Positions 2,660 to 14,412 of a stretch of DNA of 14,435 bases are shown piece after piece (within the stretch, counting starts at the first letter, position 1; every line of letters starts with the position of its first letter). This stretch comes from Actinomycetes bacterium (lineage in GTDB: Bacteria > Actinomycetota > Acidimicrobiia > Acidimicrobiales > RAAP-2), in NCBI GenBank assembly GCA_021787255.1, contig JAJYMD010000200.1, positions 1 to 14,435 of the forward strand. Reading direction: 5' to 3'. Made by a program: the position numbers and the translations under genes. Under the pieces are notes generated by a model. The model saw nothing but the letters and a program-made list of their open reading frames with translations. It ran no database searches and was not told the origin of the DNA.

Positions 2660-2719
2660 GTCCCGCAGGTGAGGCAAAAGGCAAGCAGGCAAAAGAGCTA
2701 CAAGAGAGGAACGAGGCCG

Positions 2720-3496
2720 TTGCCCGTCGATTACGTGCTGGAAGACCACGTCGCGTGGGTCACGCTCAACCGACCGGAGCGACGCAATGCCCTCGACGCC
2801 GCGATGCATGCCGAGCTCGCTTCGATCTGGGCCGAGATCGAAGCGAGCGCTGACGCGCGGGTCGTGGTGCTCACGGGGGCAGGCGACCAGGCGTTCTGCG
2901 CAGGCGACGACATGAAGAGCGAAGGGGGCAAGACCGGGACGGACTACTGGCTGGACTTGCGTCCTGACGGCTTCGGTCATCTGACGCTGCGCCGGACGCT
3001 CTCGGTCCCCGTCCTCGCCCGCGTCAACGGCCACGCGCTCGGCGGCGGGTTGGAGCTGGTGTGCGGGTGCGACCTCGCGGTCGCCGCGGACAGTGCGGAG
3101 TTCGGCTTCGTAGAGCCCCGACTGGGCCGCCTCCCGCTCGACGGGGGGATCGTCGCCCTCGTGCGCCAGCTCCCTGCCAAGTGGGCCATGGAGGTCCTTT
3201 TGACGGGACGCCGGTTCACGGCAGAGGAAGCGGCCCGTCTGGCGCTCGTGAACGAGGTCGTCCGCCCGGACGAGCTGGACGCCGCGGTCGAACGATGGCT
3301 CGGCTGGCTGCTCGCCTGCGCGCCGCTCTCGCTCCGGGCGATCAAGGCGGTCACGAAGGCCACGGAGGGCATGACGGCTCGCCACGCACGGCTCCAGCAG
3401 GTGCCCGAACTGCTCGCATGCCTCGGGTCGAACGACGGGCGTGAAGGCGTCCAGGCGTTCCTCGAGAAGCGCGCGCCGAGATGGACCGGCACCTGA
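2720..3496 (+). CDS. Enoyl-CoA hydratase/isomerase (crotonase) family protein
   Basis: A 258-residue cytosolic crotonase-fold enzyme, the usual length for the family. LNRPERRNALD (16-26), the first oxyanion-hole segment AFCAGDD (58-64) and the second, NGHALGGGLEL (103-113), are all present. Both acidic residues used by classical hydratases are kept: Glu112, and Glu132 in GFVEPRLG. It should therefore be able to do acid-base chemistry on an enoyl-CoA or related thioester. TGRRFTAEEAARLALVNEVV and the LPLDGG segment recall the carnitinyl-CoA dehydratase and enoyl-CoA hydratase branches, but the substrate cannot be read. I chose TTG 2720: AGAGAGGA lies 9 bases upstream and the protein then starts like its relatives. 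The frame stays open far upstream, but that part is antisense to ferredoxin. The gene is divergent from the ferredoxin operon and 97 bases ahead of the phosphorylase. Confidence 0.93.
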   Translation: MPVDYVLEDHVAWVTLNRPERRNALDAAMHAELASIWAEIEASADARVVVLTGAGDQAFCAGDDMKSEGGKTGTDYWLDLRPDGFGHLTLRRTLSVPVLARVNGHALGGGLELVCGCDLAVAADSAEFGFVEPRLGRLPLDGGIVALVRQLPAKWAMEVLLTGRRFTAEEAARLALVNEVVRPDELDAAVERWLGWLLACAPLSLRAIKAVTKATEGMTARHARLQQVPELLACLGSNDGREGVQAFLEKRAPRWTGT

Positions 3497-3593
3497 CGCC
3501 GAGCACGTCCACCGGCGCCGACCACGCGACCGACCCCAAGCTCGCGCTACTCGGTAGGGTGTGGGCCGTCCAAGGCCGATCGGGAGGCTCACC

Positions 3594-4385
3594 GTGGACG
3601 TCCAGCCGATCCTGCGCGAGCTGTTCCAACGGTCCGACCTGCCGAGGACCGCGCTCCTCCCCGGAGACCCGGGTCGCGTCGACCTCATCTGCCGGAACTG
3701 GACCGACACCGAAGAGGTGCACGCCGTGCGTGGGTACCGTGCCGCCCTCGGACGGCTGACATCGGTCCCCATCGCTGCGATCTCCACCGGGATCGGGGGA
3801 CCTTCGAGCGAGCTCGTCGTCGCCGAGGCGGCCGCGCTCGGCTTCACCTCCCTCATCCGCGTCGGGACGAGCGGGAGCCTTCACGAGCGCGTACGTCCCG
3901 GCGACCTCGTGATCAACGAAGCGTCCGTCCGCCTGGACGGCACCTCGGAGCTGTACGCACGAGCCACGTACCCCGCCGCCGCCGACCACAGGGTCACCGC
4001 AGCGCTCTGCGACGCTGCCGCCGCGTTGGGATGCACCTACCACGTGGGGGTCGGCTGCACCTCGGCGTCGTTCTTCGCCGGGCAGGAACGCGCGACCCCC
4101 CAGGGATACCTACCGCCGGCCGCGCACGGCCTCATGGAGGAGATGCGCGCGCTCAGCGTGCTGAACTTCGAGGAGGAAGCTGCGACGCTCTTCGTCCTCG
4201 GCCGCCTCCTTGGCGTGCAGACGGGCGCTGTGCTCGCGATCATCGGCAACCGTGTCTCGGGCGACTACCCGGACCCGACCGAGGCGGTTCGGCGCGCGGT
4301 CGACGTCGCGAACCGGGCGGCGGTGCTGCTGCACGCTCGGACGGCCGTCGAGGCACCGAAGCGAGCCGGGGAGACGGCCACGTGA
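3594..4385 (+). CDS. udp: Uridine phosphorylase-like nucleoside phosphorylase
   Basis: A 263-residue NP-I family enzyme, close to E. coli uridine phosphorylase (253). It should cleave a nucleoside with phosphate into a free base and pentose 1-phosphate. Phosphate-site elements are LLPGDPGRV (21-29), Arg46, and Arg89 with Thr92 in RVGTSGS; STGIGGPSS lies at 64-72. GQER (163-166) keeps Gln164 and Arg166, matching the Gln166/Arg168 pair that reads uracil in E. coli Udp, so a pyrimidine base is favoured. The ribose-binding motif reads NFEEEAAT (191-198). Glu195 matches the ribose-binding Glu198, but the usual Met before it is Glu194, which may signal an altered sugar. The GTG start at 3594 has GGGAGG 6 bases upstream; an in-frame GTG at 3561 lacks this. 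The stop overlaps the next gene as GTGA. No clear promoter lies in the 97-base gap upstream. Confidence 0.9.
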   Translation: MDVQPILRELFQRSDLPRTALLPGDPGRVDLICRNWTDTEEVHAVRGYRAALGRLTSVPIAAISTGIGGPSSELVVAEAAALGFTSLIRVGTSGSLHERVRPGDLVINEASVRLDGTSELYARATYPAAADHRVTAALCDAAAALGCTYHVGVGCTSASFFAGQERATPQGYLPPAAHGLMEEMRALSVLNFEEEAATLFVLGRLLGVQTGAVLAIIGNRVSGDYPDPTEAVRRAVDVANRAAVLLHARTAVEAPKRAGETAT

Positions 4386-5536
4386 GCCACGTGAGCGCTC
4401 CACCTGGCTGGGGATGCCGGCTCATCCGTGAGGCCGCGACGTACCGGGACGGCGTGATCTCCATCCTCGACCGCAGACGGTACCCCCTCGACGTCGTCCG
4501 GGTCGACTGCCGGAGCGTGGAGGAGGCCGCCGCCGCGATCGAGCAGATGGTGACCCAGAGCGCCGGTCCCGCTCGCGTGGCCGCGTACGCGATGTGCCTC
4601 GCGGCGAGGGAGCCGGCTGCCAACGGCGAGACACGCGCACGCCACCTGGCGGACGCCGCGACGCGCCTCGTCGACACCCGTCCGACGAACGACCAGATCG
4701 CGAACGTCGTGAACGAGATCCGAGCGTTCGCCTCCGCCGCGCCCGGCGGAGGGACCGAGGAGGAGATCCTCGGGTTCCTCGAGAGCCGCTGGCGCGCGCG
4801 CGACGCCGAGCTGCGGCTGCTCGGCTCTTCGGGGGCCGACGTCGTACCGCCGACAGGACGCGTCCTCACGCACTGCTGGGCGGAGCACGGGCTGATCGCA
4901 GTGCTCGAGGCGTGCATCGCGCGCGGGGACCATCCCGGCGTCTACTGCACGGAGACCCGGCCCTACCTCCAGGGTGCGCGCCTCACGGCATCGAGCGTCA
5001 TGGAGCTCGGGCTCGAGGCAACCGTGGTGACCGACGGCATGGCCCCGTGGCTCATGGCCCAAGGAATGGTCGACGTGGTCGTCGTGGGCGCCGACCGTGT
5101 GGCCGCCGACGGATCGGTGGTGAACAAGATCGGCACCCTTTCGGTCGCGCTCGGCGCCAAGCATGCCGGGATCCCCTTCTATGCGTGCATCGTCGAGCCG
5201 GACCTTTCGGTCGCCACCGGAAGCCAGGTCGCCATCGAGGCGCGCGACCCCGCGGAAGTGCTGAGCTGTCTGGGCGTGCGGACGGCTGCCCCAGGCTCGC
5301 ACGGCTGGTACCCGGCCTTCGACGTCACCCCGGCCGAGCTCGTGACCGGTCTCATCACCCCGCGAGGGGTCCTCGCCCCGCCGGACCTCGCCGGAGCCTT
5401 CGATGACACGTCCCGGAGCGTGGCCGGCGGCGCGCCGGCGAACGCCGCGGCGGACCGCCTTCAGAGCTCCCGCCTCACTCGCCGTAGCGGCGCCTGCGCA
5501 TCTCCTCCCACACGGCGTCGAGCTCGACCCCGGTGA
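4382..5536 (+). CDS. MtnA/eIF2B-alpha family aldose-1-phosphate isomerase, divergent
   Basis: A 384-residue member of the family that isomerises aldose 1-phosphates to ketose 1-phosphates (MtnA on methylthioribose 1-phosphate, DrdI on 5-deoxyribose 1-phosphate, archaeal ribose-1,5-bisphosphate isomerase). Cys165 (VLTHCW) and Asp238 (GADRVAADGSVVNKIGT) match the catalytic Cys160 and Asp240 of Bacillus MtnA. ETRPYLQGARLTA (191-203) and VVTDGMA (215-221) are also canonical. It departs from true MtnA in two places: the residue after the catalytic Cys is Trp rather than the CNAG sequence, and the early RGAPAIG motif is replaced around 59-66 (QSAGPARV). A sugar without the methylthio group, such as ribose 1-phosphate or a 5-deoxy- or modified pentose 1-phosphate, is therefore plausible. 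The GTG start overlaps the phosphorylase stop, tying the two steps together. The conserved fold ends near residue 343; the last 40 residues are unconserved and partly antisense to the aldolase gene. Confidence 0.85.
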   Translation: MSHVSAPPGWGCRLIREAATYRDGVISILDRRRYPLDVVRVDCRSVEEAAAAIEQMVTQSAGPARVAAYAMCLAAREPAANGETRARHLADAATRLVDTRPTNDQIANVVNEIRAFASAAPGGGTEEEILGFLESRWRARDAELRLLGSSGADVVPPTGRVLTHCWAEHGLIAVLEACIARGDHPGVYCTETRPYLQGARLTASSVMELGLEATVVTDGMAPWLMAQGMVDVVVVGADRVAADGSVVNKIGTLSVALGAKHAGIPFYACIVEPDLSVATGSQVAIEARDPAEVLSCLGVRTAAPGSHGWYPAFDVTPAELVTGLITPRGVLAPPDLAGAFDDTSRSVAGGAPANAAADRLQSSRLTRRSGACASPPTRRRARPR

Positions 5537-6188
5537 GGATCCTTGGTACGCCGTAGGAAAGCGACCGGCGGTACACGCCACAGAGCCACTCGAGCAAGAG
5601 CGCGCGTTCGTACGCGCGCTCGAGCGTCTCGCCGTAGGTGAGCGCGCCGTGGTTCTCCAGGATCGCAGCGCTGCGTCCGGCAAGCGCCGTGCCCACCGCG
5701 CGCGCGAGGTCCACCGATCCGAACCGGGCGTAGGGGGCCACTCGGACCGGACCCCCCAGCGCGACGATCGCGTAGTGGACCGCCGGGAGCACCTCGAGGG
5801 TCGCGGAGAGGGCGACCACCTCCGTCGAGTGCGTGTGGACCACCGCCCGAGCGTCCGTCGTCACGTACACCTCGTGGTGCATCGGCCACTCCGAGGACAC
5901 CTCGCCGCGTCCCGACACCTTGGTGCCGTCGAGGCGCACGACGCAGACGTCCTCGGGTCGCATGGACTCGTAGCTCGCCCCCGACGGCGTCACCACGACG
6001 TGGTCGCCCACCCGTACGCTGAGGTTGCCGGCGGTGCCGACGGCCAACCCGTCGGGGCCGAGGCGCCGGGCGTAACGAACGATCTCTGCGCGCTCGGCCT
6101 CGAGGTCGTCGCCGTCCGCGATCCGCTGCGAACCGCGCGCACCCGGGTCGGCCCCGGGGCCGTCAGCTTCTGGACCTGACGCGCCCAC
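5475..6188 (-). CDS. Class II aldolase, L-fuculose-1-phosphate aldolase-like
   Basis: A 237-residue zinc aldolase of the FucA/AraD/adducin family. It would split a ketose 1-phosphate into dihydroxyacetone phosphate and an aldehyde. All zinc ligands are present: Glu100 (SSEW), His118 and His120 (VVHTHS) and His180 (LENHG), matching E73, H92, H94 and H155 of E. coli FucA. GTAGNLSVR (51-59) and TPSGASYE (67-74) form the phosphate-binding part. HYAIVALGG and APYARFG also follow FucA closely. Ribulose 1-phosphate or a 5-modified ribulose 1-phosphate from the neighbouring isomerase is the expected substrate (inference). GTG 6188 is well supported by GAGG 6 bases upstream and lies 3 bases after the lacI stop, so the two are co-transcribed. 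About 28 unconserved residues precede the fold. The 3' end overlaps the isomerase gene by 62 bases. Confidence 0.92.
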   Translation of the reverse strand: MGASGPEADGPGADPGARGSQRIADGDDLEAERAEIVRYARRLGPDGLAVGTAGNLSVRVGDHVVVTPSGASYESMRPEDVCVVRLDGTKVSGRGEVSSEWPMHHEVYVTTDARAVVHTHSTEVVALSATLEVLPAVHYAIVALGGPVRVAPYARFGSVDLARAVGTALAGRSAAILENHGALTYGETLERAYERALLLEWLCGVYRRSLSYGVPRILTGVELDAVWEEMRRRRYGE

Positions 6189-6191
6189 CGC

Positions 6192-7298
6192 TCACCTCAG
6201 AGGGGATCGGGGCGACCCCGAACGATCGGTCCCAGCGATGACGGCTCTCTGCGGGCGCTCCTCCACCTCTCCGGTCGACGCTCTGACGACCAGACTCGGC
6301 TGCAGCGTGACGCGTGCGGCCGCGTGAGCTCCACGCTCCTTGGTTCGGTCGAGGAGCTCGATGCTCGTCATCGCGAGCTCGTCGGTGGGCTGTCGAACGG
6401 TGGTCAACGGAGGATGAGCGACCGCGCTGAACCACACGTCGTCGTACCCCGTCACCATCAAGTCGGACGGGACGCGAACCCCGGCCTCGTGGCAGGTCTG
6501 CAAGACGCCGAACGCGATGGCGTCGTCCCCGCATACGACTGCGTCGGGCAGACGGTTGCGTACCAGGAGCTGCTTGCTCGCGTCACGACCCCAGTCGGAG
6601 GTGAACTCTCCAAGCGCCGGATCCGAAACGGGACGGAGGCCGAGACGTCCCACGGTGGCACTGAATGCCTTCAGCCTCCGTCGTGCAGTCGAGCTCTCGT
6701 CCCGAGCGCTGACGAAGTGCACGGTCTTCGCCCCTCTTTCGGCAAGGTGCGCGAGGACCAGCCGGATCCCGACCTCGTCGTCGACCCCGATCCAATCTGC
6801 GTCGAGACGGTCGGCTTCCCGGTCCAGCTGGACGACCGGCACTCGCTCCGCGACCCTGGCCAAGGCAGCACGGCTCCTCTTCGAATCGCACGGCACGATG
6901 ATGAGCCCGTCGATGCGACGCTCGACCAGCTCCTGCAGCCGACGGCCCTCGAGCTCTGCATCGCTCCCCGAGGCAGACAGGAGGAGCGTCCGACCAGAGC
7001 GTTGGAGCTCCTTCTCTACGGCCTCGGCGCACATCGCGAAGAAGGGATTGGCGATGCTCGGGACGATCATGCCGACAGTGCTCGAGGACTTCAGACGCAA
7101 CCCCTGCGCGAGGGCATTGGGTCGGTACCCGAGGTCCTCTGCTGCACGCCGTACCCGCGCGACCAATTCAGGCTGGACGTGACGCTTGCCGTGCAGCGCG
7201 CGAGAGACGGTCGCGACGGACACGCCTGCGCGATTCGCGACGTCACGGATGGTCGGCGTCTGGGCGTCCCAGAGACCCTCTCTTTTCACGCTCTCCAC
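6192..7298 (-). CDS. LacI-family transcriptional repressor
   Basis: A 368-residue LacI/GalR regulator. The DNA-binding helix-turn-helix spans about residues 16-41 (TIRDVANRAGVSVATVSRAL at 16-35), followed by the hinge helix PNALAQGLR (60-68). A periplasmic-binding-protein-like effector domain follows from about residue 73 (VGMIVPSIANPFFA). FGVLQTCHEAGVRVPSDL and GYDD are typical of the sugar and nucleoside sensing branch (RbsR, PurR, CytR relatives). The GTG start at 7298 has GGGAGGA about 5 bases upstream. The gene is followed immediately by the aldolase and diverges from the dioxygenase/ABC transporter operon. A perfect 14-bp operator lies between, so it likely represses both directions. 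The ligand is expected to be a nucleoside, a pentose or a pathway intermediate; the sequence does not say which. The C-terminal 30 residues are Arg- and Ser-rich and unconserved. Confidence 0.95.
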   Translation of the reverse strand: MESVKREGLWDAQTPTIRDVANRAGVSVATVSRALHGKRHVQPELVARVRRAAEDLGYRPNALAQGLRLKSSSTVGMIVPSIANPFFAMCAEAVEKELQRSGRTLLLSASGSDAELEGRRLQELVERRIDGLIIVPCDSKRSRAALARVAERVPVVQLDREADRLDADWIGVDDEVGIRLVLAHLAERGAKTVHFVSARDESSTARRRLKAFSATVGRLGLRPVSDPALGEFTSDWGRDASKQLLVRNRLPDAVVCGDDAIAFGVLQTCHEAGVRVPSDLMVTGYDDVWFSAVAHPPLTTVRQPTDELAMTSIELLDRTKERGAHAAARVTLQPSLVVRASTGEVEERPQRAVIAGTDRSGSPRSPLR

Positions 7299-7324
7299 CG
7301 GATCCTCCCGGGCGGCAGCCGGCC

Positions 7325-7353
7325 TTGACGCACTTCCGCTCGGCCGCTATCGT
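7325..7353 (+). promoter_or_regulatory. Operator-controlled promoter for the transporter operon
   Basis: TTGACG (7325-7330) and TATCGT (7348-7353) are separated by exactly 17 bases, a good sigma-70-type promoter. Transcription would start near 7360, a few bases before the LacI-type operator, leaving an untranslated leader of about 160 bases before the dioxygenase gene. Confidence 0.55.
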
Positions 7354-7377
7354 ACCCTTGATGGAGGGAAAACGTTT
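7349..7377 (-). promoter_or_regulatory. Candidate lacI-aldolase promoter overlapping the operator
   Basis: On the minus strand TACGAT (7354-7349) is a fair -10 element for lacI, with a start near 7342 and a leader of about 44 bases. The -35 position, 17 bases upstream, falls inside the operator and matches the consensus poorly. The -10 shares its bases with the -10 of the plus-strand promoter, so the two polymerases would exclude each other. Confidence 0.35.
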
Positions 7378-7380
7378 TCC
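7367..7380. promoter_or_regulatory. LacI-family operator, perfect 14-bp palindrome
   Basis: GGAAAACGTTTTCC is a perfect inverted repeat with the central CG step that LacI/GalR proteins bend with their hinge helices. It is the only such site I see in the window. It starts about 7 bases after the predicted plus-strand transcription start and covers the -35 position of the minus-strand lacI promoter, so it can block both. Confidence 0.8.
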
Positions 7381-7465
7381 ATTCCCGCACGGGGCCCCGG
7401 CGAGCGGTCAGTCGGGCCAAGTCCACACCCCGCGCCCACGAACGCACAGGTCAACACCAACCAAC

Positions 7466-7494
7466 TTGATCGCGCACCGCAGGTCTATTACGAT
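7466..7494 (+). promoter_or_regulatory. Possible second promoter for the dioxygenase/transporter operon
   Basis: TTGATC (7466-7471) and TACGAT (7489-7494) are 17 bases apart, giving a start near 7501 and a leader of about 22 bases. It lies roughly 90 bases from the operator, so it would escape simple steric repression. It may give basal expression. Confidence 0.4.
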
Positions 7495-7522
7495 TCCGTG
7501 ACGCAACGGAGGGAGGGGTCGC

Positions 7523-8359
7523 TTGCGCCAGACAGTGTCCGAGCGAGAGGTCGCCTTCTACCGAGACAACGGCTTCGTCGTGCTCCCCGACCTGCTCGAC
7601 CCACACGACCTCCGCATCTGGCGCCACGCGGTCACCAGAGCGCTCGGCGAGCGAACGGGTCGGTTTCCGAGAGCCGACTCTCAGTACGCGCCGTTCTTCA
7701 GCGAAGTCCACGAGTACCATGACAAGGTCTTCACGCAGAAGATCAACCTGTGGATGACGAGCCCCGACGTCCGGGAACTGGTCCTCGACCGGCGCCTCGG
7801 ACGCATCGCCGCCACGCTGGCCGGCGTCGATGCCGTGCGCATCTACCTCGACCAGGCTCTCGTCAAGGAGCCCTACGCCAACCCCACCGCGTTCCATCTC
7901 GACGTTCCGTACTGGGCGTTCAGTGCAAGCAACGCGCTGACGATCTGGATCGCGCTCTCGGACGCGACCGTGGAGAACGGGTGCCTCTGCTATCTCCCCG
8001 GAACGCATCGCGACGAGCGGTACGACAACGTCCAGATCGACAAGGACATCGGCGCGTTGTTCGACGTGTACCCGGACTGGGGGAAGATCGAGCCGATCTT
8101 CTGCCCCGTGCCCGCAGGGGGGGCCGTGGTCCACAACGGGCTGACGGCGCACGGCGCCGGTGCGAACATGACCCCCCACCGACGAACCGCCATGACCGTC
8201 GCGTACATGCCCGACGGCGCCCGCTTCAACGGGTCCCAGGATGTGTACACGAAAGAGCAGGTCAGAGGCATGGCGCTCGGCGACGTGCTCGACGACGAGG
8301 CACAGAACCCGCTCGTCTTCTCCGTGTCTACGGGCTCTTCGGCACGTTCCTCGCACTGA
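7523..8359 (+). CDS. Phytanoyl-CoA dioxygenase (PhyH)-family Fe(II)/2-oxoglutarate oxygenase
   Basis: A 278-residue non-haem iron oxygenase of the PhyH family; members hydroxylate very diverse small molecules using O2 and 2-oxoglutarate. The iron triad is His125-x-Asp127 (AFHLDVPYW) and His210 (NGLTAHGAG). Arg220 or Arg221 (PHRRTAM) is placed to bind the 2-oxoglutarate carboxylate. ENGCLCYLPGTH (151-162) is the conserved strand between them. The opening SEREVAFYRDNGFVVLPDLL is the usual N-terminus. The TTG start at 7523 has GGAGG 6 bases upstream; an in-frame GTG at 7535 is the alternative. It is the first gene of the ABC transporter operon, which suggests it acts on the imported compound, perhaps a hydroxylation or dealkylation of a modified nucleoside or sugar. 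That role is inference; the fold and iron site are clear. No signal peptide, so it is cytoplasmic. Confidence 0.9.
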   Translation: MRQTVSEREVAFYRDNGFVVLPDLLDPHDLRIWRHAVTRALGERTGRFPRADSQYAPFFSEVHEYHDKVFTQKINLWMTSPDVRELVLDRRLGRIAATLAGVDAVRIYLDQALVKEPYANPTAFHLDVPYWAFSASNALTIWIALSDATVENGCLCYLPGTHRDERYDNVQIDKDIGALFDVYPDWGKIEPIFCPVPAGGAVVHNGLTAHGAGANMTPHRRTAMTVAYMPDGARFNGSQDVYTKEQVRGMALGDVLDDEAQNPLVFSVSTGSSARSSH

Positions 8360-10845: not shown

Positions 10846-12384
10846 ATGGAACTCGCTGTCGAACACCTGACGAAGTCCTTCTCCGGCACGCCGGTGCTGA
10901 ACGACGTGTCGTTCACGCTCAAAAGCGGCGAGGTCGTGGCCCTGCTCGGTCAGAACGGCAGCGGGAAGTCCACGCTCATCAAATTGCTGACCGGCTTCCA
11001 CGTTCCGGACCCCGGGTCCAACGCGGCCCTCGTGCTCGACGGCACTCGGTACCCCTTGCCGGTCGTCGACCAGCAGCTCCCGGACTTCAGGATCGGGGCG
11101 GTCCACCAGGACCTCGGGCTCGTCGTGTCCGCCAGCGTCGGAGAGAACCTGCTCCTCGGGCAGCCGGGGACGACGGGGCTCCGCCCCATCCGGTGGTCGA
11201 AGTTCTACGCAAAAGCCGACCAGATGCTCGCCCGCGTCGGCGCGAAGAACGTTCCGGCGCGCGCGGTGGTGCGAGACCTGCCAGCCGTCCAGCGCGCGGC
11301 CGTGGCGATGGCCCGTGCCGTCGGGCATGTCGCGGGGCGCGGCCTGCTCATCCTCGACGAGGTCACCGCCTTCTTGACCCAAGACGGTGTCGACGAGCTG
11401 TTCGAGCTGGTCCAGGAAGCGTCCAAGGCCGGGGTCATGGTCCTCTTCGTCTCCCACCGGCTGGAGGAGATCTGGCGCATCTGCTCCCGGGCGATCGTGC
11501 TGCGCAACGGCAACCTGGTCGCCGACACGAACCTGCAGGGCAAGACCAACGACGATCTGGTCGACGCGATCGTCGGGCAGCCGCTGGACTGGCTGTACCC
11601 GCCCAAGAGCGAGGTGTCAGGCCCCGTCAGGCTCCGCCTCGGCGTGGAGGACGAACCGAGGTCCGCTGGGTTCCAGATCCAGGCACGGGCCGGGGAGATC
11701 CTGGGCGTCACCGGTCTTCGAGGCATGGGGTACCAGCGCGTCATCCGCACCCTGTACGGGGAGCTGCCGCGGAGAGGGCATCTGCAGATCGACGACGACG
11801 AGATCGACCTGCTCGACATGAACCCCATCCGTGCATACCGGCTCGGCATCCGCCTCGTTCCCTCCGATCGGCTGAAGAACGCAGCGTTCGGCGACGCGAG
11901 CGTGAGCGAGAACGCGTCGCTACCGGTCCTCGCGCAGTTCATGCGACACGGCCTGTACCGGCGAAGGTCCGAGGCCGCCTGGGTCGAGGAGCTCGTGCAC
12001 GACTACGGCATCGTTCCCCAGGACCCCGTTGTCCCGTTCCGCGCGCTCAGCGGCGGGAACCAGCAGAAGGTCGTCGTCGCCCACTGGCTCGAGACCCAGC
12101 CCCGGGTGCTCTTGCTGGACGAGCCGGTCCAGGGCGTCGACGTGGGAGCGAGACGCGACATCTTCCTGCGCATCGTGCAGTCTGCGAACAGCGGTGTCAC
12201 GATCGTGTACTCGTCGAGCGAACCGGACGACCTGGCCGAATTGTGCCACCGGGTCCTCGTCTTTCGCGACGGACGGATCTCCGGCGAGCTCTCGGGGGCC
12301 GCCGTCACCGCGCACAGCATCAGTCGCATGAGCTGGACGGCTCCTGGCGACGCCGAAAAGTTCGAGGCGGAGCACCATGGATGA
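10846..12384 (+). CDS. ABC transporter ATP-binding protein with two nucleotide-binding domains (RbsA/MglA-like)
   Basis: A 512-residue double ATPase that powers the RbsC-like permease. Domain 1 has a good Walker A (GQNGSGKST, 35-43), Q-loop Gln88, Walker B ending LILDE (168-172) and switch His204. Its signature is degenerate (LPAVQR, 145-150, instead of LSGGQ or LSVGQ), and the usual DEPT reads DEVT. Domain 2 has the degenerate P-loop expected in this family (GLRGMGYQR, 290-298), a perfect signature LSGGNQQK (401-408) and Walker B LLLDEP (422-427). This arrangement, one competent Walker A paired with the second domain's signature, fits RbsA-type proteins with a single active ATP site. ATG 10846 has no evident Shine-Dalgarno and lies 93 bases after the binding-protein gene behind a strong hairpin, so low expression is likely. 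The 3' end overlaps the kinase start by 8 bases. Confidence 0.93.
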   Translation: MELAVEHLTKSFSGTPVLNDVSFTLKSGEVVALLGQNGSGKSTLIKLLTGFHVPDPGSNAALVLDGTRYPLPVVDQQLPDFRIGAVHQDLGLVVSASVGENLLLGQPGTTGLRPIRWSKFYAKADQMLARVGAKNVPARAVVRDLPAVQRAAVAMARAVGHVAGRGLLILDEVTAFLTQDGVDELFELVQEASKAGVMVLFVSHRLEEIWRICSRAIVLRNGNLVADTNLQGKTNDDLVDAIVGQPLDWLYPPKSEVSGPVRLRLGVEDEPRSAGFQIQARAGEILGVTGLRGMGYQRVIRTLYGELPRRGHLQIDDDEIDLLDMNPIRAYRLGIRLVPSDRLKNAAFGDASVSENASLPVLAQFMRHGLYRRRSEAAWVEELVHDYGIVPQDPVVPFRALSGGNQQKVVVAHWLETQPRVLLLDEPVQGVDVGARRDIFLRIVQSANSGVTIVYSSSEPDDLAELCHRVLVFRDGRISGELSGAAVTAHSISRMSWTAPGDAEKFEAEHHG

Positions 12385-13369
12385 GGTGGGCATCGTGGCG
12401 GACGACATGACCACGCCCGGATGGTCATGCGACGCCCCTGCTCCTGCTCCCGATCACACTCGCGCCGGCGCAACCGCCTCGGTGGTCGTGGTCGGTTCCA
12501 TCAACACCGACCAGGTCGTGCGCATCGAGCGGCGCCCAGGCCCAGGGGAGACGGTCGGCAACGGGACGATCGAGCTCCACTCGGGGGGAAAGGGCGCGAA
12601 CCAGGCGGCGGCCGCAGCTCGCTGCGGCGCGACCGTGGCGATGGTGGGCCGCGTCGGCAACGACCCCTACGGCCATGCTCAGCGCGAGGCCCTCTCGGAC
12701 GACGCGCTCGACGTCTCCTTCGTCGAGGTGACCGACGGCGTCCCGACGGGCCTTGCGATCGTGATGGTGACCCCTGACGGCGAGAACTCGATCATCGTCG
12801 TGCCGGGCGCCAACCGGCGTCTCAGCGCTGCGGACGTGGACGCCGCCGCGCCGCTCGTCACGACCGCCAGGGTCCTCGTGGCCCAGCTCGAGGTTCCCCT
12901 CGAGGCCGTGCAGCGAGCCGTCGATCTCGCCGCAGAAAGCGGCGGTTTCGTCGTCTTGAACTGCGCGCCGTTCAGCGCACTGCCGGTCTCCGTCCTCGCC
13001 TCGACGACCGTCCTCGTCGCCAACGAAGTCGAAGCCGCCGCGCTTGCCCGCTGCCCCACGGGGAGCCTCGAGGAGGCCTTCGACGCCGCGTCTCGGATCC
13101 ACACCATGGGGCCCCGCTACGCGGTGATCACCCTGGGTCCCCTCGGAGCGGTGGTCGTGGGTGCCCACGAGCACGCGCACGTTCCCGCGAAGAGCGTCCC
13201 GGTCGTCGACACGACCGGCGCAGGGGACGCGTTCGTCGGGGCCCTGGCAGCCGCCCTGTCCAAAGGGCGCGGCATCGTCGACGCGGTGCGCTTCGGGGTC
13301 GACGTCGGGTCCGCGACGACCACGAGCTTCGGGGCGCGTGCGGTCGTCCCCAGCAGGCTCTCGTCGTGA
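12377..13369 (+). CDS. rbsK: Ribokinase-like PfkB-family sugar kinase
   Basis: A 330-residue PfkB kinase closest in pattern to ribokinase, which makes ribose 5-phosphate from ribose and ATP. VVVVGSINTDQVV (36-48) and HSGGKGANQ (68-76) form the substrate-binding N-terminal signature. DTTGAGDAF carries the anion hole (GAGD, 281-284) with Asp284 as the catalytic base. ITLGPLGAVV is the nucleotide-side strand. Ribose released by the adjacent nucleoside hydrolase is the obvious substrate; a related pentose or nucleoside cannot be excluded, since PfkB kinases vary. The ATG at 12377 has GGAG 5 bases upstream and overlaps the ATPase stop. It gives a 34-residue N-terminal extension not found in E. coli RbsK; GTG 12395 is an alternative start. 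The stop overlaps the nucleoside hydrolase GTG as GTGA, so the two are coupled. Confidence 0.88.
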   Translation: MDEVGIVADDMTTPGWSCDAPAPAPDHTRAGATASVVVVGSINTDQVVRIERRPGPGETVGNGTIELHSGGKGANQAAAAARCGATVAMVGRVGNDPYGHAQREALSDDALDVSFVEVTDGVPTGLAIVMVTPDGENSIIVVPGANRRLSAADVDAAAPLVTTARVLVAQLEVPLEAVQRAVDLAAESGGFVVLNCAPFSALPVSVLASTTVLVANEVEAAALARCPTGSLEEAFDAASRIHTMGPRYAVITLGPLGAVVVGAHEHAHVPAKSVPVVDTTGAGDAFVGALAAALSKGRGIVDAVRFGVDVGSATTTSFGARAVVPSRLSS

Positions 13370-14412
13370 CCGAGCCGAGATCGCCGACGCCAAGCGGTAC
13401 CGATCGGACGCCGCCGATCGCCGAGCAACCCCAGCCGGACGCCGGTCGTGCGCGCAAGATCGTCCTCGACTGCGACCCGGGGCACGACGACGCCGTCGCG
13501 ATCACCCTCGCGGCCGCCAGCCCGGCCGTCGACCTCGTCGCGATCACCACCGTCGCCGGCAACCAGACCGTCGACAAGACGACGCGCAACGCCTGCGTGA
13601 TGTCCAGCCTCCTCGGCCTCACCGAAACCCCCGTGGTCGCGGGCTGCGCGGGACCGCTCGTGCGCTCCTTGCGCATCGCGCCGGAGTTCCACGGGCAGTC
13701 AGGTCTCGACGGTCCTGCGCCCGTCGTGCCGGTCGTGCAGCCGTCGCCCGGTCACGCCGTCGACCGGATCATCGACGTGCTGATGGCGAACCCCGGCGAG
13801 GTCACGCTCGTCGCAACCGGGCCGCTCACCAACGTGGCGATGGCCCTGCGCAAGGAGCCCGCGATCGTGTCGGCAGCTCGCGAGATCGTCATCATGGGAG
13901 GTGCCTACGCTCGGGGGAACATCACGCCCGCGGCGGAGTTCAACGTCTACGTGGACCCGGAGGCTGCGCGGGCGGTGTTCGAGGCGCCGTGGCGCCTCAC
14001 GATGCTGGGCCTCGAGGTGACGCACCAGGCCACGTTCACCCGCGCCGAGGAGCGCCGGCTCGAGGAGATCGGGACGCCCCTCAGCCGGTTCCTGGTCGAG
14101 CTGCTGCGCTACTTCCGGGATGCCTACCGGTCCGCAGCCGGGTTCGAGGATCCCCCCGTGCACGACCCGTGCGCCGTCGCCTACGTGATCGACCCGACGC
14201 TGTTCGAGGTGCAGAGCGCACGCGTCGAAGTCGAGACGGCCGGGGTGTGGACGACGGGCATGACGGTCACGGACTTCCGGCCCGCGAACGCCGACGCGCA
14301 CCGCGTCGGGGTCGGGACGGCGCTCGACCGCAGTAGGTTCTGGGACCTCGTGCTCACGGCCGTCGAGCGAGCCGGGAGCGCCCCTGCGGACCCCATGGCC
14401 GCGAGGTCCTAG
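13366..14412 (+). CDS. Nucleoside hydrolase (inosine/uridine-preferring, IunH/Rih family)
   Basis: A 348-residue calcium-dependent N-ribohydrolase that splits nucleosides into base and ribose in the cytoplasm. The diagnostic DCDPGHDDA (35-43) carries the calcium and ribose ligands. GNITPAAEFN (184-193) is the second ribose-binding loop. His266-Asp267 in HDPCAVAY match the leaving-group histidine and the calcium aspartate of the family. TGPLTNVA and MGGAY are also standard. About 30 Pro-rich residues precede the fold; they may be a linker, or the true start may be later, though GTG 13366 overlapping the kinase stop is the natural choice. Base preference cannot be assigned. With the ribokinase-like gene it forms a complete nucleoside to ribose to ribose 5-phosphate route downstream of the transporter. 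The 23 bases after its stop are too few to identify a next gene. Confidence 0.94.
   Translation: MTEPRSPTPSGTDRTPPIAEQPQPDAGRARKIVLDCDPGHDDAVAITLAAASPAVDLVAITTVAGNQTVDKTTRNACVMSSLLGLTETPVVAGCAGPLVRSLRIAPEFHGQSGLDGPAPVVPVVQPSPGHAVDRIIDVLMANPGEVTLVATGPLTNVAMALRKEPAIVSAAREIVIMGGAYARGNITPAAEFNVYVDPEAARAVFEAPWRLTMLGLEVTHQATFTRAEERRLEEIGTPLSRFLVELLRYFRDAYRSAAGFEDPPVHDPCAVAYVIDPTLFEVQSARVEVETAGVWTTGMTVTDFRPANADAHRVGVGTALDRSRFWDLVLTAVERAGSAPADPMAARS

What the first reader, a model, noticed from the sequence alone, without database searches (positions are those of the whole stretch)
3594..6188. Candidate non-oxidative nucleoside degradation route: phosphorylase, MtnA-like isomerase, class II aldolase
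Seen: a uridine-phosphorylase-type enzyme overlaps by 4 bases with an MtnA-family isomerase that keeps its catalytic Cys and Asp, and both converge on a FucA-like aldolase with all four zinc ligands. Known: MtnA/DrdI isomerases and class II aldolases convert methylthioribose or 5-deoxyribose 1-phosphate to dihydroxyacetone phosphate plus an aldehyde (the DHAP shunt). Inference: here the phosphorylase feeds a nucleoside-derived pentose 1-phosphate directly, giving base + DHAP + glycolaldehyde (or acetaldehyde from a 5-deoxy sugar) without phosphopentomutase. I do not know this exact trio, controlled together with an ABC nucleoside-type transporter, as an established system.
Basis: partly seen in the sequence, partly recalled or inferred. 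Interest (0 to 1): 0.75.

Follow-up and report, generated by a model that had tools for sequence, protein, structure and literature searches.

The report
Nucleoside-to-DHAP shunt with unusual phosphorylase
Three neighbouring bacterial genes look able to split a nucleoside and cut its sugar into a glycolysis intermediate plus a small aldehyde; this is a known kind of pathway, but its first enzyme belongs to an unexpected family, so its true substrate is open.

Summary
The three genes are real and intact: a uridine-phosphorylase-family enzyme, an MtnA-family isomerase overlapping it by 4 bases, and a class II aldolase facing them. The trio in itself is not new: phosphorylase (or kinase), MtnA-like isomerase and FucA-like aldolase, sometimes with transporters, is the published 5-deoxyribose disposal route / DHAP shunt. 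Relatives of this isomerase share a locus with methylthioadenosine/methylthioinosine-type phosphorylase in 8 of 20 isomerase loci, with the aldolase too in 3 of those 8. Unusual is the first enzyme, of uridine-phosphorylase rather than MTAP type. It belongs to a clade of 37 sequences, one of them listed with an organism name, that keeps the phosphate, ribose and base residues but has mostly lost the histidine motif at the sugar's 5' end. The aldolase lies behind a LacI-type gene, divergent from a nucleoside-type ABC operon with a perfect GGAAAACGTTTTCC palindrome; no such site precedes the phosphorylase-isomerase pair. I favour a DHAP-shunt variant for a 5'-deoxy or 5'-modified nucleoside.

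The parts
3594..4385 (+). uridine-phosphorylase-family nucleoside phosphorylase (263 aa), GTG start behind a GGGAGG
4382..5536 (+). MtnA-family isomerase (384 aa) of the MVTQ/HCW clade; Cys165 and Asp238 kept
5475..6188 (-). FucA-like class II aldolase (237 aa), Glu100/His118/His120/His180
   Evidence: PF00596; best NCBIfam model NF053831 ribulose-1-phosphate aldolase 182 bits, below its 300 cut-off; residue positions
6192..7298 (-). LacI-family regulator, RbsR/UriR-like, directly upstream of the aldolase
   Evidence: PF00356 + PF13377; NF047341 225 bits, NF051853 UriR 192 bits, both below cut-off
7325..7353 (+). promoter-like site TTGACG-17-TATCGT before the ABC operon
   Evidence: 1 found in 3300-7600, 0.1 expected in shuffles
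7367..7380 (.). perfect palindrome GGAAAACGTTTTCC, LacI-family operator-like
   Evidence: only match in the window at up to 3 mismatches, 0.14 expected
7523..8359 (+). PhyH-family dioxygenase, first gene of the divergent operon
   Evidence: PF05721 104.8 bits
8419..9465 (+). ABC sugar/nucleoside-type permease
   Evidence: PF02653
9493..10752 (+). ABC substrate-binding protein
   Evidence: PF13407
10846..12384 (+). ABC ATPase of the ribose (RbsA) type
   Evidence: PF00005; NF008030 303 bits, below its 745 cut-off
12377..13369 (+). ribokinase-like PfkB kinase
   Evidence: TIGR02152 292.7 bits, cut-off 299.65
13366..14412 (+). UriH-like nucleoside hydrolase
   Evidence: PF01156; NF052221 396.8 bits, cut-off 450

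Best explanation
The trio is a DHAP-shunt-type module. The phosphorylase splits an imported nucleoside with phosphate into base and a pentose 1-phosphate; the MtnA-like enzyme isomerises that aldose 1-phosphate to the ketose 1-phosphate through Cys165 and Asp238; the zinc aldolase cuts it to DHAP and a two-carbon aldehyde. A uridine-phosphorylase-type enzyme takes the place of the usual MTAP/MtnP. The likelier substrate is a 5'-deoxy or otherwise 5'-modified nucleoside, with the neighbouring UriH-like hydrolase and ribokinase handling ordinary ribonucleosides in parallel. Shown: families, intact catalytic residues, gene order, clade membership, neighbourhoods of relatives. Inferred: the order of reactions, that the three enzymes work together, and the substrate.
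For: Families and residues. The isomerase belongs to a clade (MVTQ in 120 of 120 listed homologues) whose members, in 20 isomerase loci, have within about 3 kb an MTAP/MTIP-type phosphorylase in 8, MTR kinase in 4, and MtnC+MtnB in 5; the full trio phosphorylase + isomerase + class II aldolase is present in 3 (L002, L003, L018) and kinase + isomerase + aldolase in 3 (L001, L020, L021) (family models for part of these). The same trio is described in print. The phosphorylase alignment keeps invariant, in 32 rows, the residues that by recalled numbering bind phosphate (R28, R46, R89), ribose (E195) and uracil (Q164, R166, R220). Its clade of 37 mostly lacks the canonical Y-H-[ILV] motif near residue 8. 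Same-length contigs suggest co-occurrence elsewhere: isomerase/phosphorylase pairs P0002/P0122 (8460 bases) and P0073/P0132 (30667), isomerase/aldolase pair P0003/P0242 (5457). A hydrolase plus ribokinase is already there for ordinary ribonucleosides.
Against: The 5'-site argument is weak: the window has Arg8 at the aligned column, but its 84% identical relative P0122 has His there. The base pocket looks pyrimidine-like, whereas the known 5'-deoxynucleosides of the shunt are adenosine derivatives. The aldolase's best named model is ribulose-1-phosphate aldolase, and it is only 29% identical to E. coli Ald2. Among phosphorylase homologues in genomes, 0 of 23 short and 0 of 20 long Actinomycetota loci and 0 of 30 short and 0 of 38 long Chloroflexota loci have an MtnA or class II aldolase match nearby. 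The aldolase is on the opposite strand, in the LacI unit.
Confidence: 0.5

Rival explanations
1. One reading: an ordinary ribonucleoside such as uridine gives ribose 1-phosphate, which the MtnA-like enzyme isomerises directly to ribulose 1-phosphate, and the aldolase cuts that to DHAP and glycolaldehyde.
For: Uridine-phosphorylase family with conserved Q164/R166/R220; best named aldolase model is haloarchaeal ribulose-1-phosphate aldolase, 182 bits against 151 for the next; LacI/ABC/ribokinase/UriH neighbours point to ribonucleosides; haloarchaea make DHAP plus glycolaldehyde from guanosine by way of ribulose 1-phosphate (PMC9700705).
Against: The listings show no paper whose title or abstract start claims a ribose 1-phosphate isomerase (I opened one's papers, by passages); the isomerase clade keeps company with MTR/5-deoxyribose enzymes; haloarchaea use a kinase, a bisphosphate isomerase and a phosphatase for the same conversion; UriH plus ribokinase would make the route redundant.
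Confidence: 0.3
2. The genes do not form one pathway: the phosphorylase-isomerase pair serves salvage (for example of a methylthio-nucleoside), and the aldolase belongs to the LacI/ABC unit for another sugar phosphate.
For: Opposite strands; aldolase directly behind LacI; operator-like palindrome only at the LacI/ABC divide; the listed aldolase relatives stay at 59-68% identity from P0244 on, while the isomerase list drops to 51% or less after its first three entries and the phosphorylase list to 59% or less after its first two.
Against: P0003 and P0242 (isomerase and aldolase, 75% and 74%) have the same longest-contig length and source, as expected if they stay together; class II aldolase near MtnA is a known pattern.
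Confidence: 0.15
3. A nucleotide version: the altered 5' site with Arg8 accepts a 5'-phosphate, giving ribose 1,5-bisphosphate and then RuBP, cut by the aldolase to DHAP and glycolaldehyde phosphate.
Confidence: 0.05

Closest known systems
5-deoxyribose disposal (drd) clusters / DHAP shunt, phosphorylase variant (MtnP-MtnA-Ald2)
   Same: Phosphorylase or kinase, MtnA-like isomerase and FucA-like class II aldolase in one cluster, sometimes with transporters; chemistry ends in DHAP plus an aldehyde (PMC6079011, PMC10986504; passages).
   Different: Here the phosphorylase is of the uridine-phosphorylase type, not MTAP/MtnP; isomerase only 30% and aldolase 29% identical to the E. coli ATCC 25922 DHAP-shunt proteins; LacI/ABC/ribokinase/UriH/PhyH neighbours.
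Non-carboxylating pentose bisphosphate pathway of haloarchaea
   Same: A uridine-phosphorylase-family enzyme (guanosine-preferring) and a ribulose-1-phosphate aldolase in one nucleoside-degrading pathway (PMC9700705).
   Different: That route uses a ribose-1-phosphate kinase, ribose 1,5-bisphosphate isomerase and RuBP phosphatase; the window has an MtnA-type isomerase and a ribokinase-type kinase, and no HAD phosphatase among the 13 window proteins scanned.
Uridine utilisation operons with UriR, RbsK and UriH (Corynebacterium type, recalled)
   Same: LacI-type regulator, transporter, ribokinase and UriH-like hydrolase together.
   Different: ABC instead of a secondary transporter (recalled); PhyH dioxygenase and the trio are additional.
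Fluorometabolite route of Streptomyces cattleya
   Same: 5'-fluoro-5'-deoxyadenosine to fluoroacetaldehyde plus DHAP, cited as precedent in PMC6079011 (passage); recruitment of MTR-1-P isomerase discussed in PMC7408626 (passages).
   Different: No fluorinase among the 13 window proteins scanned; the phosphorylase family of that route is recalled, not tested.

Membership tests
DHAP shunt / 5-deoxyribose disposal cluster | MtnA-like isomerase with catalytic Cys and Asp | tested here: met
   NF004326 290 bits over cut-off; Cys165, Asp238 invariant in 25 rows
DHAP shunt / 5-deoxyribose disposal cluster | FucA-like class II aldolase next to it | tested here: met
   PF00596, convergent, overlapping by 62 bases
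DHAP shunt / 5-deoxyribose disposal cluster | MTR kinase or MTAP/MtnP-type phosphorylase in the cluster | tested here: not met
   Only a uridine-phosphorylase-type enzyme; no MTAP or MTR-kinase model among the hits shown for the ten window proteins scanned at E 0.001 (three of the ten lists were cut at 25)
DHAP shunt / 5-deoxyribose disposal cluster | activity on 5-deoxyribose 1-phosphate or MTR-1-P | not testable with these tools
   needs enzymology
Uridine phosphorylase (TIGR01718 equivalog) | score over curated cut-off | tested here: not met
   225.4 against 280.3 bits
Uridine phosphorylase family (fold and base/phosphate residues) | NP-I fold and conserved binding residues | tested here: met
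Uridine phosphorylase family (fold and base/phosphate residues) | 5'-OH-binding histidine (His8 of E. coli, recalled) | tested here: inconclusive
   canonical motif mostly lost in the clade; Arg8 in the window, His8 in P0122; register at the N terminus uncertain
Canonical MtnA (TIGR00512) | score over cut-off and RGAP phosphate loop | tested here: not met
   243.5 against 279 bits; MVTQ in place of the RGA loop
Haloarchaeal non-carboxylating pentose bisphosphate pathway | ribose 1,5-bisphosphate isomerase (TIGR00511) | tested here: not met
   155 against 314 bits
Haloarchaeal non-carboxylating pentose bisphosphate pathway | ribulose-1-phosphate aldolase (NF053831) | tested here: inconclusive
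   best model for the window aldolase, but 182 against 300 bits
Haloarchaeal non-carboxylating pentose bisphosphate pathway | ribose-1-phosphate kinase | tested here: not met
   window kinase scores 293 bits for ribokinase, 87 and 77 for the two ribose-1-phosphate kinase models (cut-offs 500 and 330)

The most novel reading that the evidence does not exclude
A bacterial shortcut for ordinary pyrimidine ribonucleosides: uridine to ribose 1-phosphate, direct isomerisation to ribulose 1-phosphate by an MtnA-clade enzyme, then DHAP plus glycolaldehyde, with no phosphopentomutase, kinase or pentose phosphate pathway. It would be the first ribose 1-phosphate isomerase I know of.
Probability: 0.25. 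Interest if true: 0.65.

Novelty: new variant of a known kind. Interest (0 to 1): 0.4.

Why it matters
If the phosphorylase accepts 5'-modified pyrimidine nucleosides, it adds a substrate class to a shunt known for adenosine-derived waste. If it works on uridine, it would be a route from nucleosides to glycolysis that skips the pentose phosphate pathway, which I know only from archaea, by way of bisphosphates. Either way it marks a phosphorylase clade, listed almost without organism names, whose altered sugar pocket can be tested directly, and it gives the MVTQ-type MtnA clade a new partner.

Tried and rejected
Rejected: that the isomerase is a new kind of enzyme because it lacks the RGAP loop. 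The MVTQ clade sits in methionine-salvage and DHAP-shunt neighbourhoods, so loop loss alone does not mean a new reaction. Rejected: ribose 1,5-bisphosphate isomerase. Weakened on inspection: 'the phosphorylase lost its 5'-OH histidine, hence a 5'-deoxy substrate'; P0122, 84% identical, has His at the aligned column.

Led nowhere: phosphorylase neighbourhoods. Actinomycetota, 21 of 396 genomes with a match: 0 of all 23 short loci (1.5 kb each side where the contig allows) and 0 of 20 longer regions (20 of the 21 genomes; G175, a fragment at a contig end, left out) show MtnA or aldolase. Chloroflexota, 71 of 350 genomes: 0 of the 30 short loci given and 0 of 38 longer regions from 35 of the 71. 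Alphaproteobacteria and Pseudomonadota, 4 of 240 and 12 of 200 genomes, some genomes in both: 18 matches; 1 of 18 short loci has MtnA nearby, and that one (L155) is the L016 gene met before; 0 of 8 longer regions (6 of 6 and 2 of 12 matches), all 8 with the canonical histidine. Class of G020: 22 of 31 genomes have an MtnA match, all 22 of the THCN form. Aldolase search: 2 of 198 Actinomycetota genomes at 1e-55, best 50-51% identity, no MtnA in their short loci. A LacI-consensus scan gave no more hits than chance. Plasmid searches: no match at 60% identity or more. Contig-length coincidences at 4927 and 1298 bases were set aside: the two proteins come from different sources in each case, and 1298 bases cannot hold both genes.
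Full report
What is there. Pfam and NCBIfam scans identify the three genes as stated: a uridine-phosphorylase-family enzyme (3594-4385, +), an MtnA-family isomerase (4382-5536, +) and a FucA-like class II aldolase (5475-6188, -). The first two share bases 4382-4385. The isomerase and aldolase frames overlap tail to tail by 62 bases. The aldolase follows a LacI-family gene (6192-7298, -) after 3 bases. Divergent from LacI runs an operon: PhyH-type dioxygenase, ABC permease, binding protein, ATPase, ribokinase-like kinase and UriH-like nucleoside hydrolase. No whole genome is held for the window, so I could not ask what else the organism has. The one aldolase homologue listed with an organism name is Acidimicrobiales (P0252); the window's own taxon is not established.

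The isomerase clade. All 120 listed homologues carry MVTQ in place of the canonical VRGAP loop, and 117 of 120 carry HCW in place of HCN; the list is the best 120 of 7863 matches. In a 65-sequence tree all 40 MVTQ sequences plus the N-terminally cut L018 piece fall on one side of a node with modest support, 0.68. The E. coli DHAP-shunt MtnA is canonical and lies outside, 30% identical to the window; so do the 22 MtnA of the class of G020 and the second MtnA-like gene of L016. I examined the neighbours of 20 isomerase loci: 16 from genome contigs and 4 plasmid loci, three chosen from the 120 records matched by the isomerase and one for holding both an isomerase and a phosphorylase match. Within about 3 kb of the isomerase are an MTAP/MTIP-type phosphorylase in 8 (L002, L003, L009, L010, L012-L014, L018), MTR kinase in 4 (L001, L019-L021), MtnC and MtnB in 5 (L004, L006-L008, L015; four of these also have a gene 32-33% identical to MTR kinase), a uridine/purine-phosphorylase-like gene in 1 (L016), and nothing clear in 2 (L005, near a contig end; L011, weak hits only). 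A FucA-like aldolase joins in 6: with MTIP in L002, L003 and L018, with kinase in L001, L020 and L021. NCBIfam scores pass the curated cut-off for the MTR kinases of L001 and L019, the MTIP of L018 and MtnC and MtnB of L004; the phosphorylase of L009 and the aldolases of L001 and L018 have these families as best models but below cut-off. The others rest on similarity to those proteins. So the trio phosphorylase-isomerase-aldolase exists elsewhere with this isomerase clade, but with an MTAP-type phosphorylase.

What is in print. Beaudoin et al. 2018 (PMC6079011; passages) searched for clusters of kinase-or-phosphorylase, MTR-1-P-isomerase-like and FucA-like proteins, found them in six phyla, some with sugar transporters, and assayed the kinase, isomerase and aldolase. 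PMC10986504 (passages) names the variant in which MtnP replaces nucleosidase and kinase. PMC9700705 (abstract, passages and discussion) shows DHAP plus glycolaldehyde from guanosine in haloarchaea, by way of bisphosphates, with a uridine-phosphorylase-family enzyme that prefers guanosine. PMC12632272, PMC6302742 and PMC7408626 were seen as passages. Searches for 'ribose-1-phosphate isomerase', 'ribulose-1-phosphate aldolase' with nucleoside and isomerase, 'uridine phosphorylase' with methylthioribose and with 5-deoxyribose listed no paper whose title or abstract start describes this trio with a uridine-type phosphorylase. The library lacks most subscription papers.

The phosphorylase clade. 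Among the 120 listed homologues I picked by eye 37 without the canonical Y-H-[ILV] motif. In a tree of 186 sequences (those 120 plus 66 from fetched loci) exactly these 37 form one node with support 1.0. The set was chosen from the same alignment, so this is description, not a blind test. A mechanical check found no His within one column of the canonical position in 34 of the 37; P0122, P0125 and P0134 have one, and P0133 is too short there to tell. The window has Arg8 at the aligned column, its 84% relative P0122 has His8 exactly there, and many others have Phe, Leu, Ile or Arg. If the structural alignment, which begins at residue 3 opposite E. coli 5, runs without gaps, Ile6 lies opposite His8. 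So the usual 5'-OH contact may be absent, but this is not secure. The window also has Glu194 where the clade nearly always has Met. Of the 37, only P0125 (Thermomicrobiales) is listed with an organism name. Of the 66 sequences from loci, only L016, L061 and a cut-off L117 lacked His by the mechanical check, and all three fall outside the clade.

Is the trio conserved? For the closest relatives only indirect evidence is available. P0002 (isomerase, 78%) and P0122 (phosphorylase, 84%) list the same longest contig length, 8460, and source; P0003 (isomerase, 75%) and P0242 (aldolase, 74%) share 5457; P0073 (46%) and P0132 (48%) share 30667. For isomerase against phosphorylase lengths of at least 5 kb, a limit set after seeing the lists, 2 coincidences are seen where jittered lengths give 0.115 on average, and 2 or more in 0.55% of trials. 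Against the first 43 of 120 aldolase lengths there is 1 coincidence, 0.047 expected; the phosphorylase/aldolase match at 13182 is the window's own proteins and was not counted. The DNA itself was out of reach. Against conservation: none of 20 long and 23 short Actinomycetota loci, and none of 38 long and 30 short Chloroflexota loci, around phosphorylase homologues has an MtnA or aldolase match; nearly all of those aligned are of the histidine-bearing type.

Control. A perfect 14-base palindrome, GGAAAACGTTTTCC, lies at 7367-7380, 13 bases downstream of a promoter-like site that faces the ABC operon. It is the only match in the window at up to 3 mismatches and looks like a LacI-family operator (recalled resemblance). 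It could control LacI-aldolase and the ABC operon together. Nothing similar precedes the phosphorylase-isomerase pair, so joint control of the whole trio is not shown.

Judgement. Between 5'-modified nucleosides and ordinary uridine, the isomerase clade and the presence of a separate UriH/ribokinase route favour the former; the aldolase model and the base pocket favour the latter. I put the former at about 0.5 and the latter at about 0.3.

Noticed in passing
7523-8359: A PhyH-type dioxygenase opens a nucleoside-type ABC/ribokinase/UriH operon; a role in unmasking a modified nucleoside (for example a 2'-O-methyl one) is a guess.
   Followed up: no
7367-7380: Perfect palindrome GGAAAACGTTTTCC behind a promoter-like site between the LacI and PhyH genes, a likely operator.
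   Followed up: partly
625-2395: FAD-dependent oxidoreductase (PF12831) and a ferredoxin (PF00037) on the minus strand, possibly one unit.
   Followed up: partly
2714-3496: Enoyl-CoA hydratase (PF00378) 97 bases upstream of the phosphorylase, same strand; no evident link.
   Followed up: partly
L016:9926-15546: A gammaproteobacterial locus with two MtnA-like genes and a convergent uridine/purine-phosphorylase-like gene beside the first: another non-MTAP phosphorylase next to an MVTQ isomerase.
   Followed up: partly
L004:11008-11763; also L007, L008, L015: A distant UriH-like hydrolase gene (138 bits, cut-off 450, for L004) directly behind an MVTQ-type MtnA, ahead of MtnC and MtnB; that it replaces the nucleosidase of methionine salvage is a guess.
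   Followed up: partly
L018:4887-9013: Polaromonas plasmid: the isomerase lies in two frames and is annotated as two hypothetical proteins; the aldolase match is also in two frames.
   Followed up: no
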